From Victivallaceae bacterium (GTDB lineage Bacteria; Verrucomicrobiota; Lentisphaeria; Victivallales; Victivallaceae): 38,662 nt of DNA. The notes under the pieces were generated by a model. The model was given only the letters and a program-made list of their open reading frames with translations. It made no database searches and was not told the DNA's origin. Positions 3,903 through 8,327 of this stretch are shown piece after piece. The stretch lies in assembly GCA_028718375.1 (NCBI GenBank), contig JAQULZ010000007.1, forward strand, positions 1 to 38,662. The letters run 5' to 3'. The translations under genes and the position numbers were made by a program. Each line of letters opens with the position of its first letter. The stretch's first letter is position 1.

Positions 3903-4346
3903 ATGAAAAAATGCTTAATGGCACTGGCGCTGGCGGGATGCTGTTTTTTGCCGGCAGGATGTTCGAAGCAGGACAGTTCTATCAATTCTCTGATAGAAGT
4001 CAACCTGCAAAAACACAACCGGGAGTTAGTGAATCTGGGTGAGGCTTATCCGGAGCGATGGGACAAATTCTACGTTTTCGAGCCCTATACTCCGAAAGAG
4101 AAAATCGAGCGCACATTAGGCTGTGACTTTTCCGGTAATTCAAGGATCAGTCGTTCCGAGTCAATTTCATTGCTGATATTTGTCAAGGATGGAAAAGTTG
4201 TTTCATGGACGGATTATCCGCGGCATCGTGGGGATTTTTCCAAGCTGTACAGAAGTGAGGGCTATCTCAGAAAAAAAGCAATATTCAAAGTTGCGGACAA
4301 ATCGGCAAAGTGGCTTACTTTTACAGTTCTTCACAAAAATCTGTAA
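3903..4346 (+). CDS. Small putative lipoprotein, unknown function
   Basis: A 147-residue protein with a lipoprotein-like signal: a charged MKKC start, a hydrophobic core and the sequence LPAGC|SKQD, giving a candidate lipidated Cys at residue 20. The mature part contains YVFEPYTPKEKIERTLGCDF and LLIFVKDGKVVSWTDYPR...GDFSKL. This pattern resembles a family of short hypothetical lipoproteins whose members carry a similar 'PY...E...LG' block and a C-terminal 'GDFSKL'; I recall that likeness from memory and did not search for it. There is no clear Shine-Dalgarno sequence, only a purine-rich AAAAAGAA before the ATG. It stands alone between divergent and unassigned DNA. Confidence 0.6.
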   Translation: MKKCLMALALAGCCFLPAGCSKQDSSINSLIEVNLQKHNRELVNLGEAYPERWDKFYVFEPYTPKEKIERTLGCDFSGNSRISRSESISLLIFVKDGKVVSWTDYPRHRGDFSKLYRSEGYLRKKAIFKVADKSAKWLTFTVLHKNL

Positions 4347-4768
4347 TGGAACGCAAACCGTTAATGTCACCAATGCAGTCCCGAGTTGAGTATCGCTTTT
4401 TCAATCGCGGTAAAGTTGTTCCGCGGCATAAAACCGCTCACTTCGTTTGCTATTTATACGCTCCAGAACTTGACAGCTCAATCAAAAGCGAAGATCATCA
4501 CCGTCGTCAAAAACAAAAAAACAATTTTTTTGTTTTTGAACTGTTTATCAGCTCTTTTGCCGGGGCGTCGAGTCAAGGCAAAATACCCGCTCGGAAAAAC
4601 ATTTTCGACATTGATCCAGATTTTTGAGAAGAACCACTTTTACCCGAAATTGACCGGTGCTGAAAGGAAGCGGCTAAAAGCGTTGAACCCGGAAAACGCC
4701 GGAATGGAAAAAATCCGGGATTTTGGAAGTGATAATTTCTTTATCCATGAAGTGTTTGAATTATTTTT
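4347..4768. other. Unassigned stretch between lipoprotein gene and MITE-1
   Basis: About 420 bases without a recognised gene. A 131-codon open frame (4386-4781, plus) crosses it, but its last codons lie inside the inserted element at 4769 and it resembles nothing I know. Its middle is the A/T palindrome near 4508-4538 (AAAACAAAAAAAC...TTTTTTTGTTTTT). The C-terminal part (LTGAERKRLKALNPENAG) looks protein-like, so a decayed gene is possible. Confidence 0.4.
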
Positions 4769-5078
4769 GGGTCTTCACTAGAATTTATGGGTGAAACAAT
4801 GGGAGCTACATCAGAACCCGTCGTCAATCAAGCGGCAATCCGGCATAACCGGTCGCAAGCTCCCTTTTATTCCGTTTGCTCGCTTGATAGCCGTCGGAAC
4901 CTGATGTAAATACAGTTCTTGTCGCTTCGGAAGAAAAAAAAGATTTTTCTTCCGAATCCTTGAAAAACATTGGCCGCCCCATCCGTCATATCGCATCTGA
5001 AATGACGGATTTTTTTGAACGTTAAAATATTTTCGCTCACTCTGAGCCAATGTAATCCACAAATTCTGGCGAAGAGGC
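4769..5078 (+). mobile_element. MITE-1: 310-bp transposase-less element with 8-bp target duplication
   Basis: The left end reads GGGTCTTCACTAGAATTTAT and the right end, read inward on the minus strand, GCCTCTTCGCCAGAATTTGT, giving inverted ends of about 24 bp. It is flanked by perfect 8-bp direct repeats TTATTTTT at 4761-4768 and 5079-5086. It contains a long interrupted hairpin (4807-4908; CATCAG/CTGATG outer and ATCAAGCG/CGCTTGAT inner stems), a perfect 13-bp hairpin (4926-4938 with 4944-4956) and the inverted pair CCGTCAT/ATGACGG. No coding capacity is visible. The end type and 8-bp duplication recall ISL3-family elements, so mobilisation in trans is inferred. The insertion abuts the oxidoreductase stop codon without altering it. 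Confidence 0.88.
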
Positions 5079-5085
5079 TTATTTT

Positions 5086-6384
5086 TTATTTTGATTGTTT
5101 TCCGGCAGCAGGTGAGGAAAGCTGAAATTCCTGAGGCCATATTTCCGCTATTTCAATGGTTCTCTCCTCTTTCCGTGAAAGTTCAGCGGCGAAAACAATT
5201 GCATGGGATCTCAATACTTCCCGGGTATCAACCCCGATCCCGGCTGGGGGTTTCTGAGGGGCGGCAATGGCGGAAAACCAATCAATTACGATGTCCTTAT
5301 CTTCGGGATGGTAGCTGTCAGGCGGCTTAATATCAATCACTTCCGATATTGATGAATTAAAATTCCATATTTTTATTTTGCCGGCTTCTTCATCAAAAAG
5401 CAGTTCTCCTTCAGTTCCATGGACGCGCGTCCGGCGTCCGTTGGTTGCGGAAAACCCGCTGAGCGTACAAGTGGCAGTGGTTCCGTTTTCATATTCCATC
5501 ATAACAACCTGATGGTCTACAACATCATTTCCTGCCCGCCAAACGCATTTACCCCATGTTCCATCCTGTACCGCCTTCAAATGCGACTTGCGGGTATGGA
5601 CGGGGGAAACGTCTCTGGCCGGCCACGCGTCCAGCTTGGAATCAATGTACAGGCGCTGTGCAGAATAAGGGCAGGAATTATTAATCTTGCAATCATCGAG
5701 ACATCGTTTTCCGCTTCCTGCCGGTGCGTTGGAAGGGGTGAAGTGGGAAAGACTGCCAAAAGATGAAACCTTGACGCAGCGGTTATCGATAAGCCAATTA
5801 ATAAAGTCCAAATCATGACAGCATTTGTGCAGAAGCAGAAACGTATTGTTTGCTTCCTTGCCCCATCTTCCCCTGACGTAATTATGAGTGAAGCGCCGAT
5901 TGCCAATCGCTTCCACATGTTCAAGATCGATAATTTTACCCAAAGTTCCGTTTTCAATGATTTTTTTAATTTTCACGAAGGAAGTCATGAAGCGGAGACT
6001 GTGACAAACCCGGACGATGCAGTTATTTTCACGGCACAGTTTATCTATTGCCAGGCAGTGGGGCCATTTATCCGCTATTGGCTTTTCCATCAGGATATGC
6101 CAGCCTTGTTCGGCGGCAGCCGTTGCCGGTCCGAAGTGCTGATTGTCCATGGTGGCAATAACTGCAGCATTACAACTACGGGATTGAGCAAATAATTCTT
6201 CCCATGAGGAAAATACTTCTTGGCCGGTAAGTGAATGGGTTTCGGCAAATTTTTTTCTGCGTATCGGATCCGGTTCTGCAACCGCGGCAATCCGGCAGTC
6301 CAGTCCGGAGGACGATAAATGATGAGCTAAATGCGTTCCCCGGACTCCTGCGCCTATTATTGCGATTTTCACTGTTTTTTTCAT
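5086..6384 (-). CDS. Gfo/Idh/MocA-family NAD(P)-dependent oxidoreductase
   Basis: A 432-residue protein with an N-terminal Rossmann fold (IAIIGAGVRGTHLA, residues 7-20), the family EKP motif (E100-K101-P102) and the KCCHDLDFINWL segment (187-198) carrying the usual catalytic His. A cysteine-bearing insert (RCLDDCKINNSCPYSA) matches a subgroup common in sugar-degrading anaerobes and PVC bacteria. Family members oxidise or reduce sugars, inositols or their derivatives; the substrate cannot be read here. The gene is isolated, bounded downstream by MITE-1, whose target duplication touches its stop codon, and upstream by a 16-bp palindrome and MITE-2. MITE-2 probably displaced or replaced the original upstream promoter region. 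Confidence 0.9.
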   Translation of the reverse strand: MKKTVKIAIIGAGVRGTHLAHHLSSSGLDCRIAAVAEPDPIRRKKFAETHSLTGQEVFSSWEELFAQSRSCNAAVIATMDNQHFGPATAAAEQGWHILMEKPIADKWPHCLAIDKLCRENNCIVRVCHSLRFMTSFVKIKKIIENGTLGKIIDLEHVEAIGNRRFTHNYVRGRWGKEANNTFLLLHKCCHDLDFINWLIDNRCVKVSSFGSLSHFTPSNAPAGSGKRCLDDCKINNSCPYSAQRLYIDSKLDAWPARDVSPVHTRKSHLKAVQDGTWGKCVWRAGNDVVDHQVVMMEYENGTTATCTLSGFSATNGRRTRVHGTEGELLFDEEAGKIKIWNFNSSISEVIDIKPPDSYHPEDKDIVIDWFSAIAAPQKPPAGIGVDTREVLRSHAIVFAAELSRKEERTIEIAEIWPQEFQLSSPAAGKQSK

Positions 6385-6451
6385 ATCATCTGAAATATAA
6401 TGCCGGTTGAAATATTAACCAGCGGTTTAACGAAAAAAATCATTTTCATTC

Positions 6452-6495
6452 ATTCAACCGCCTGACCACCTGTTTAGGCGGTCAGGCGGTTGAAT
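6452..6495. promoter_or_regulatory. Perfect 16-bp inverted repeat upstream of the oxidoreductase
   Basis: ATTCAACCGCCTGACC (6452-6467) is repeated exactly inverted at 6480-6495, with a 12-base centre. It lies 68-111 bp upstream of the oxidoreductase start and 11 bp from MITE-2. It could be an operator or a hairpin terminator for leftward transcripts entering from MITE-2: a T-rich run follows about 10 bases beyond the stem on the minus strand. The sequence alone does not decide between these. Confidence 0.55.
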
Positions 6496-6506
6496 AATTA
6501 AAAAGT

Positions 6507-7036
6507 GCTTCTTCACCAGAATTTATGGGTTATATATGCTCAGATTGAGCGAAAATATTTCGGTGTTCAAAAAAATCCGTTATTTCAAATATGGTATGAC
6601 GGCGCCGGCCCTCCTTTTTTTGGTGGGCCCTTAAGCCCCCCAAACCCCCTCTGCGCCTTTCGCCGGCGGCGGCAGGGCAATGCCCTGCACTTTGACGCTT
6701 CCTTTGCCTTGGTCTGTCCGCGTGATACCGTGAAGCCCCGGCTGCGCCGGACACTTCCCGGTATCACACGGGAGAGCAAAAAATCTTCGCTCCCGCCCTC
6801 CGGGCACTGAGCTCAATTTTAAAAGCCGAATTCCTTAGTTGCCTGCTTTATTATTATGTTTCAGGGAAAACAAACCATTGTTTTTCTCTGAAAGCAAAAA
6901 AACTTTACTTATCAGGTTCCTGGCCTTGTCAAGCTGAATCGAAATAAATAGCGAAGCGGTTTATGTCGAATCCGAGCTTGACAAGAGCAGGGTTCTGATA
7001 TATTTGCGTTCAACCCATAAATTCGCGCGAAGACCC
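6507..7036 (-). mobile_element. MITE-2: 530-bp relative of MITE-1 with 8-bp target duplication
   Basis: The ends are GCTTCTTCACCAGAATTTAT (left) and GGGTCTTCGCGCGAATTTAT (right, minus strand). Perfect 8-bp direct repeats TAAAAAGT flank it at 6499-6506 and 7037-7044. It shares about 110 bp of one subterminal region and about 130 bp of the other with MITE-1, in the opposite orientation, and has about 220 bp of extra GC-rich interior (about 6610-6830). It contains the hairpin 6910-7000, homologous to 4807-4908 of MITE-1, and a GTGATACCG/CGGTATCAC stem near 6721-6768. No credible reading frame is present. Confidence 0.88.
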
Positions 7037-7067
7037 TAAAAAGTTTTTGCAGGAAAAGTTGGGGTAC

Positions 7068-7121: not shown

Positions 7122-8327
7122 CTAGGGAGTCAGGGTTTCGATGGCGGCGATGATTTCCTGCAGCAGATCGGGGTATTCGGGGATTTTCGCTTCTTCTGCG
7201 ATGATTTTTGAGGGAAAAACGGCGGTGGCCGGATTGGACGGCGCGAAAACCGTACAACTGTCCGGCACCGGTTCATTGGACAGTTCCAGCGTTCCGATCC
7301 GCTGCGCCGCCCGGATCGTCTCGTTTTTATCGTTGCCGACCAGCGGCCGCAGAACCAGCAGGTCGGCCGCCGCGCCGATCGTCGCCATATTGGCGATCGT
7401 CTGGCTGGCCACCTGGCCGACCGCTTCGCCGGTGAGCAGGGCGGCGCGCCGGTGTTTCGCCGCCAGCGCGGCCGCGATGCGGAACATCATCCGCCGGTAT
7501 AAAATCGTCCGGAAGCGCGGATTGCACTTATCCCGAATGAGTTTCTGCAGCGGCGCGAGATTGCAGATGAATAACCGCGCCGGACACTGAAAGCGGTTCA
7601 AATGATGAGCGATGCGGCGGACTTTGTCCACCGTGGCCTGCGGGGTATAGGGGTAACTGTGAAAGGTCAGAAAGTCGCAGCGGCAGCCGCGTTTCATGAT
7701 CTGGTAGCACGCCACCGGCGAATCAATGCCGCCGGACAGCAGCGCCAGCACCGGGGAATTCGAGCCGACCGGCAATCCGCCGGGGCCGCGGATGACTTCA
7801 TAGTAAACGAACGCGAATTCCGAGCGCACTTCGCACCAGACCGTGATGGCGGCGTTTTCCAGGTCCACTTCGAGAGAATCCGGATCGTAAATTCGCGCGA
7901 TTTCAGCGGCGAGTTCGATTTCGATGCCCTTGGAGTCCGGCTCGAATTTCTTGTCGCTGCGTTTGGCGCGAATCCGGAAGGAAACCGCCGGCTGCTTTGT
8001 GAACGCCGCTGCAAAATAAGGCCGGCAGGAATTGTTCACCGCCGTTTTCAGCGCCGCGAGAGACCGTTCGCACATTATTACCGGCGAAAATGATTCCAGT
8101 CCGAACGCCCGCGGCAGTTCCTCCCGGATAATCGCCAACTGGTCATCGGTAAAAGAATTTTTGTCTTTGCGTTCGATCCAGATCCGGCCCCGGACCCGGG
8201 CGATCCGGATATCATGAAGCCGGCGCAGCAGATAATACATATTTTCGACCAGCCGGGTCTCGAACATCGACCGGTTATTGCCTTTGATGGCGATTTCGTG
8301 ATAGCGGCAGATAATCGCGTTATACAT
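7122..8327 (-). CDS. thiI: tRNA 4-thiouridine synthase ThiI (no rhodanese domain)
   Basis: A 401-residue protein. Residues 1 to about 170 form the N-terminal ferredoxin-like plus THUMP RNA-binding region (FRIRAKRSDKKFEPDS...). The PP-loop ATP pyrophosphatase motif SGGIDSP is at 198-204. ThiI adenylates U8 of tRNA and inserts sulfur, and in many bacteria also sulfurates ThiS for thiamine synthesis. The chain ends near residue 400, so the C-terminal rhodanese domain of the enterobacterial protein is absent, as in many other bacteria; sulfur must come from a separate carrier. AAGGAA before the ATG overlaps the end of pdxB, 11 bp upstream, so the two are almost certainly co-transcribed and perhaps translationally coupled. 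Confidence 0.95.
   Translation of the reverse strand: MYNAIICRYHEIAIKGNNRSMFETRLVENMYYLLRRLHDIRIARVRGRIWIERKDKNSFTDDQLAIIREELPRAFGLESFSPVIMCERSLAALKTAVNNSCRPYFAAAFTKQPAVSFRIRAKRSDKKFEPDSKGIEIELAAEIARIYDPDSLEVDLENAAITVWCEVRSEFAFVYYEVIRGPGGLPVGSNSPVLALLSGGIDSPVACYQIMKRGCRCDFLTFHSYPYTPQATVDKVRRIAHHLNRFQCPARLFICNLAPLQKLIRDKCNPRFRTILYRRMMFRIAAALAAKHRRAALLTGEAVGQVASQTIANMATIGAAADLLVLRPLVGNDKNETIRAAQRIGTLELSNEPVPDSCTVFAPSNPATAVFPSKIIAEEAKIPEYPDLLQEIIAAIETLTP

What the first reader, a model, noticed from the sequence alone, without database searches (positions are those of the whole stretch)
4761..7044. Two related transposase-less elements, each with a perfect 8-bp duplication, flank one oxidoreductase gene
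MITE-1 (4769-5078) is bounded by TTATTTTT and MITE-2 (6507-7036) by TAAAAAGT. Both share ends of the GGGTCTTC...GAATTTATGGGT type and subterminal sequence, in opposite orientation. The different duplications show two independent insertions. End sequence and 8-bp duplications resemble ISL3-family elements, which would have to supply a transposase in trans. The first insertion touches the gene's stop codon and the second removed its distal upstream region.
Basis: partly seen in the sequence, partly recalled or inferred. Interest (0 to 1): 0.62.

Follow-up and report, generated by a model that had tools for sequence, protein, structure and literature searches.

The report
Three ISL3-derived MITEs sharing a hairpin
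Short transposon remnants, moved by an ISL3-type jumping gene that this draft genome no longer shows intact, have inserted around an ordinary oxidoreductase gene; the unexpected part is that they and their parent transposons carry a conserved hairpin found in no RNA database searched.

Summary
MITE-1 (4769-5078, TSD TTATTTTT) and MITE-2 (6507-7036, TSD TAAAAAGT) have imperfect 24-bp inverted repeats (18/24 and 19/24), perfect 8-bp duplications and opposite orientation. A same-genus genome has the last 39 aa of a 90%-identical transposase. MITE-2 is a mosaic holding an unrelated dispersed repeat. The gene-damage claims are overstated: both gene ends are intact and no deletion is shown. Empty sites could not be tested. 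The new element is a ~100-nt hairpin close to the left end of MITE-1, MITE-2 and ISL3 elements whose transposases are only ~25% identical. It covaries strongly, occurs in 32 of 100 related genomes, and has no Rfam match. Its function is open (antisense RNA, transposition site, promoter). MITEs: ordinary. Hairpin: worth follow-up.

The parts
4317..4324 (.). 8-bp target-site duplication ACTTTTAC, left copy, of the third element (MITE-0)
4325..4635 (+).
4636..4643 (.). 8-bp target-site duplication ACTTTTAC, right copy
4761..4768 (.). 8-bp target-site duplication TTATTTTT, left copy (MITE-1)
4769..5078 (+). MITE-1, 310 bp; left ~205 bp is 80% identical to the left end of the intact ISL3 element of G030
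4769..4792 (+). left inverted repeat GGGTCTTCACTAGAATTTATGGGT
4807..4908 (+). hairpin HP1 in MITE-1 (covariance model R1, 103 bits)
4926..4956 (+). second, A/T-rich hairpin HP2 (13-bp perfect arms)
5055..5078 (-). right inverted repeat (GCCTCTTCGCCAGAATTTGTGGAT on the minus strand)
   Evidence: C67 copy
5079..5086 (.). 8-bp target-site duplication TTATTTTT, right copy; its last base overlaps the oxidoreductase stop codon
5086..6384 (-). Gfo/Idh/MocA-family oxidoreductase, 432 aa, intact (neighbour, not part of the elements)
6499..6506 (.). 8-bp target-site duplication TAAAAAGT, left copy (MITE-2)
6507..7036 (-). MITE-2, 530 bp, in opposite orientation to MITE-1; a mosaic
6507..6602 (-). right-end module shared with MITE-1 (82% over 96 bp)
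6614..6824 (+). dispersed GC-rich genomic repeat carried inside MITE-2; copies elsewhere in the genome lie outside ISL3-type ends
6855..6898 (-). HP2 of MITE-2
6908..7002 (-). hairpin HP1 of MITE-2 (model R1, 69 bits)
7013..7036 (-). inverted repeat GGGTCTTCGCGCGAATTTATGGGT (hairpin-side end of MITE-2)
7037..7044 (.). 8-bp target-site duplication TAAAAAGT, right copy

Best explanation
The window carries three non-autonomous elements (MITEs) derived from ISL3-family insertion sequences in a bacterium whose closest named relatives are Victivallales (Lentisphaerota). An ISL3 transposase supplied in trans recognised their ~24-bp ends and inserted each into AT-rich DNA, duplicating 8 bp. MITE-1 is an internal-deletion derivative of a GGGTCTTC-ended ISL3 element like that of G030. 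MITE-2 has the same ends but captured an unrelated dispersed repeat. MITE-0 belongs to a second ISL3 subgroup whose transposase remnant survives in the own genome. The anatomy and family are shown by sequence; mobilisation in trans is inferred. MITE-1 and MITE-2 keep the parent's left-end module, a ~100-nt structured hairpin (HP1) followed by an A/T-rich hairpin (HP2); MITE-0 has only a weak resemblance to HP1 plus an HP2-like hairpin. I infer that the module acts in cis close to the end, either controlling transposase expression or assisting transposition; which of these is not shown. The confidence given is for the MITE/ISL3 part, not for the hairpin's role.
For: Exact ends and 8-bp duplications. 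Intact G030 element: L121:517-2036, IRL GGGTCTTCACTGGAATTTGTGGGT, IRR GCCTCTTCACCAGAATTTGTGGGC, duplication AAAAAAGA, Tnp 419 aa hitting DDE_Tnp_ISL3 at 7.6e-74; MITE-1 left 205 bp 80% identical to it. Other type-A elements with perfect 8-bp duplications: own C11, G026:C42, G045:C5, G003:C176. Same-genus transposase C-terminus 90% identical to that of G030. MITE-0: duplications perfect in the window, C131 and C33, one mismatch in C28 and C49; ISL3 Tnp remnant in C66 with the same end. HP1: 92.8% of cells paired versus 80.1% shuffled; 123 double-changed cells versus 40; 32 of 100 related genomes.
Against: No intact type-A transposase is seen in the own genome; the assembly is 87% complete. No empty site could be compared. 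The MITE right ends (GCTCA..TGAGC plus an AATGACGG hairpin) do not match the G030 right end beyond the terminal repeat, so the direct parent is not identified. HP1's role is inference only.
Confidence: 0.93

Rival explanations
1. The two repeats are the ends of one composite element (MITE-1 + oxidoreductase + MITE-2) that moved as a unit and carries the oxidoreductase as cargo.
For: The ends are related and inverted relative to each other (pair I2), as in a compound transposon.
Against: Each MITE has its own, different 8-bp duplication. The outermost flanks (TTATTTTT left of MITE-1, TAAAAAGT right of MITE-2) do not match. MITE-2 occurs alone at C11 with its own duplication.
Confidence: 0.03
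2. On the hairpin: HP1 is a structured RNA transcribed antisense to the transposase leader that limits transposase synthesis, comparable in role to RNA-OUT of IS10.
For: The strand antisense to tnp folds better in 31 of 33 sequences, mean 7.4 kcal/mol. HP1 lies between IRL and the tnp start. Under an antisense-fitted structure G-U cells exceed A-C cells, 57 to 8.
Against: Under the sense structure G-U and A-C are nearly equal, 28 to 21, so the strand test is not decisive, and the antisense structure was itself fitted on that strand. No antisense promoter or terminator was sought systematically. MITEs without tnp keep HP1.
Confidence: 0.3
3. On the hairpin: HP1 is a DNA-level cis element, a subterminal transposase or host-factor site or a cruciform, that assists transposition.
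For: Kept by MITE-1 and MITE-2, which have lost the transposase. Where the element end was seen upstream, the conserved core starts 55-84 nt from it, most often 64-68, across several end types.
Against: Closeness to the end alone could explain retention in MITEs. ISL3 elements G050:C176, G025:C113 and G099:C83 show no such hairpin in the leaders read.
Confidence: 0.35
4. On the hairpin: HP1 contains the tnp promoter (TTGACA in the 3' arm), the inverted arm being secondary.
For: A TTGACA-like hexamer in almost all HP1 3' arms, in the correct direction, ~115 nt upstream of the ATG in G030.
Against: -10 matches average 3.1 of 6 against 2.6 in shuffles. Does not explain the conserved apical AATCCGGCATAA/TTATTCCGTTT.
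Confidence: 0.2

Closest known systems
ISL3-family MITEs, e.g. the 179-bp ISMac21-partnered MITE of Methanosarcina acetivorans (PMC3852290)
   Same: short, transposase-less, ISL3 partner, inverted repeats, several copies
   Different: the last value in its table row, which I read as the duplication length, is 7 bp; no hairpin module is described in the passage read; different domain of life
ISL3-family insertion sequences, e.g. ISAeme19 (PMC12554700)
   Same: imperfect terminal inverted repeats and 8-bp direct repeats; ISL3 transposase in the G030 parent
   Different: the parent here carries the HP1+HP2 leader module, not found in all ISL3 elements examined
IS10 RNA-OUT / IS200 transposase leader RNAs (own knowledge; IS200 leader RNA: PMC12594629 abstract)
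   Same: structured element near the 5' end of a transposase gene
   Different: no sequence relation shown; no transcript known; HP1 also occurs in MITEs

Membership tests
ISL3-family MITE | short, no transposase gene | tested here: met
   310, 530 and 311 bp; only short ORFs inside
ISL3-family MITE | terminal inverted repeats shared with an ISL3 IS | tested here: met
   G030 element ends; C66 remnant for MITE-0
ISL3-family MITE | partner transposase belongs to ISL3 | tested here: met
   PF01610 E=7.6e-74, PF13542 E=1.2e-5
ISL3-family MITE | 8-bp target duplication | tested here: met
   three elements in the window, plus copies in own and related genomes
ISL3-family MITE | multiple copies in the genome | tested here: met
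   MITE-0 many, MITE-2 a second full copy plus fragments, MITE-1 a second truncated copy
ISL3-family MITE | mobilised in trans by the ISL3 transposase | not testable with these tools
   needs a transposition assay; no intact transposase in the own assembly
Known Rfam RNA family (HP1) | match to any of 4227 covariance models | tested here: not met
   no Rfam match over HP1 in the window or in six other loci at gathering threshold; permissive matches over HP1 were far below gathering and of eukaryotic miRNA type
Structured nucleic-acid element (HP1) | pairing kept through compensatory changes | tested here: met
   19 of 29 pairs with double changes; covariation 0.328 versus 0.123 shuffled and at most 0.057 slid; the alignment was fitted to the model, which favours the structure

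The most novel reading that the evidence does not exclude
HP1 is an undescribed transposon-borne structured element, RNA or single-stranded DNA, that works in cis for ISL3 elements. It has been kept or exchanged between ISL3 lineages whose transposases are only ~25% identical, retained by their MITEs, and its apical core also occurs in Verrucomicrobiota and Bacteroidota genomes where no ISL3 transposase was found next to it.
Probability: 0.35. Interest if true: 0.7.

Novelty: new variant of a known kind. Interest (0 to 1): 0.45.

Why it matters
As ISL3-derived MITEs the elements are ordinary, but the parent family is now named with evidence. The hairpin matters more. A covarying structure at a nearly fixed place in diverged ISL3 elements and their MITEs suggests a regulatory or transposition part that no ISL3 description found here mentions. 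Victivallis vadensis DSM 14823, a cultured species, carries copies, so it can be tested.

Tried and rejected
Compound transposon carrying the oxidoreductase: rejected, flanks differ. Empty-site comparison: the same-genus and family genomes align only from the thiI gene onward around this locus, so no empty site could be read. Rfam: no match over HP1 at gathering threshold. HP1 as a leader that hides the ribosome-binding site: in G030 it ends ~115 nt before the ATG, so unlikely. HP1 as promoter: -35 good, -10 weak. Strand test by G-U versus A-C: inconclusive under the sense structure (28 versus 21), in favour of antisense only under a structure fitted to that strand. Paper searches for ISL3 with MITE and 8 bp, and for ISL3 with non-coding RNA and hairpin, returned none in this library; other searches gave one ISL3 MITE precedent. 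The internal repeat of MITE-2 as a separate ISL3 element: rejected, no ISL3-type ends seen around the copies read.

Full report
OBSERVATION. MITE-1 is 4769-5078 between TTATTTTT copies, MITE-2 is 6507-7036 between TAAAAAGT copies. The end motif, searched with up to three mismatches, hits only these ends in the window and never in 100 shuffles. The inverted repeats are imperfect (18/24 and 19/24 by direct reading). The elements share 82% identity over the 96 bp of the MITE-1 right end and the MITE-2 left end, so they lie in opposite orientation. The different duplications show two separate insertions.

A THIRD ELEMENT. The inverted repeat I8 led to MITE-0, 4325-4635, with perfect duplication ACTTTTAC. 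DNA from this stretch hits many places in the genome, mostly at 93-96% identity, starting at or within a few bases of its left border. In five copies that could be read at both ends the flanking 8-mers are identical (window, C131, C33) or differ by one base (C28, C49); three other read pairs (C45, C143, C46) do not match. Its end differs from that of MITE-1/2 but is that of an ISL3 transposase remnant in the same genome (C66). It lies at the 3' end of a small putative lipoprotein gene (3903-4346); taking it out in silico with one duplication gives 143 instead of 147 codons.

FAMILY. The whole-genome pattern search gave copies in the own genome and matches in 16 of 100 related genomes, own included. 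G030 carries the intact element: L121:517-2036, 1,520 bp, both ends, 8-bp duplication AAAAAAGA, a 419-aa transposase with PF01610 at 7.6e-74 and PF13542 at 1.2e-5. MITE-1's left 205 bp is 80% identical to its left end. Type-A elements with perfect duplications also exist in G026:C42 and G045:C5 and G003:C176 (CCTTTATT). In the same genus, G003:C202 encodes 39 terminal transposase residues 90% identical to G030's, and G002 has a broken 68% stretch; the own genome has no hit to that protein. ISL3 8-bp repeats (ISAeme19, PMC12554700) and an ISL3-partnered MITE (M. acetivorans, PMC3852290) are published. The duplications collected here are 87.5% A+T in a window of 47% A+T.

MITE-2 IS A MOSAIC. Positions 6614-6824 match a GC-rich repeat dispersed in the genome at about 77-91% identity; the copies read lie outside ISL3-type ends.

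GENES. The oxidoreductase (5086-6384, minus) is a Gfo/Idh/MocA protein and intact; the neighbour 7122-8327 is ThiI. The MITE-1 duplication overlaps its stop codon by one base and keeps it. MITE-2 lies about 120 bp upstream of its start and separates it from the older upstream DNA; no deletion is shown. No effect on expression is known.

THE HAIRPIN. MITE-1, the G030 element, the G001 element and others share, just inside the left end (38 nt in MITE-1 and G030, 22-54 nt in the others read), a long hairpin HP1: outer stem, a conserved AGAACC/GGAACC internal loop, a GTCAAG/CTTGAC stem, and an apical AATCCGGCATAA...TTATTCCGTTT. MITE-2 has it on the minus strand. A model built from ten sequences finds it in 32 of 100 related genomes and a second model in 20 of 289 genomes of the phylum, nearly all in the same order. 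On 33 aligned sequences 92.8% of cells pair (80.1% shuffled, 27-47% when slid), with 123 double-changed cells (40 shuffled). That alignment was fitted to the model, which leans towards it, but the double changes are many and spread over all five helices. HP1 is followed in many elements by an A/T-rich hairpin HP2. MITE-0 gives only a weak HP1 match (13.7 bits, E=0.21) and an HP2-like hairpin (I11).

WHERE IT OCCURS. It precedes ISL3 transposases of two groups only ~23-25% identical to each other (G030/G056 and G001/G015/G084). It was not seen in the leaders of G050:C176, G025:C113 and G099:C83, nor in genomes G066, G071 and G087. A scan of named genomes with the apical core reported 96 stretches, of which 80 loci were read: many Lentisphaerota including Victivallis vadensis, but also Verrucomicrobiota, Bacteroidota and others. 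Of 43 with at least 500 bases downstream, 11 had an ISL3 transposase downstream by a profile built from my own set; L275, L266 and a viral-collection contig L315 were confirmed by Pfam. In the Verrucomicrobiota and Bacteroidota loci read, neighbours varied (kinase, resolvase-containing frame, IS110-type transposase, DUF932), so the core has hosts other than ISL3. By my estimate, from 23 specified bases and 31 gap lengths, chance would give about 0.2 such matches in the collection.

HOW IT MAY WORK. Shown: a conserved, covarying structure at a set place in the element. Inferred: a cis role. For antisense RNA: the bottom strand folds better in 31 of 33. Against a clear strand: 28 G-U versus 21 A-C under the sense structure. 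For a promoter: TTGACA conserved, -10 weak. For a transposition role: MITE-1 and MITE-2 keep it without a transposase to regulate. These are not exclusive, so the rival confidences are not meant to sum to one with the main statement.

VERDICT. The finding is real and its family assignment right; as MITEs these are ordinary members of a known kind. The shared hairpin is the part that goes beyond, with function open.

Noticed in passing
window 4325-4635: Third ISL3-type MITE (MITE-0), high copy in the genome, with 8-bp duplication ACTTTTAC, at the 3' end of a small putative lipoprotein gene.
   Followed up: yes
window 4807-4908 (+), 6908-7002 (-): Conserved ~100-nt hairpin HP1 shared with ISL3 elements of the order; no Rfam match over it.
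   Followed up: partly
window 6614-6824: GC-rich dispersed repeat inside MITE-2, many other copies in the genome without ISL3-type ends; nature unknown.
   Followed up: partly
window 6443-6504: Strong inverted repeat (29-nt arms, 86%) upstream of the oxidoreductase, abutting the MITE-2 insertion site.
   Followed up: no
L222, L258, L277 (Verrucomicrobiota), core at about 507, 343-389 and 510: The HP1 apical core follows a sequence that looks by eye like the 3' end of a tmRNA or tRNA gene (the Rfam gathering search of L222 did not report one).
   Followed up: no
contig ends in G022, G033, G056, G064, G089: Many contigs break inside or just after HP1, so such elements are probably under-assembled and copy numbers are lower bounds.
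   Followed up: no
apical loop of HP1 across alignment A3 (e.g. window 4807-4908 versus L121:555-656): The apical stem occurs in two flipped forms, GGTCGC..GCTCCC and GCTCCC..GGTCGC, in different elements.
   Followed up: partly
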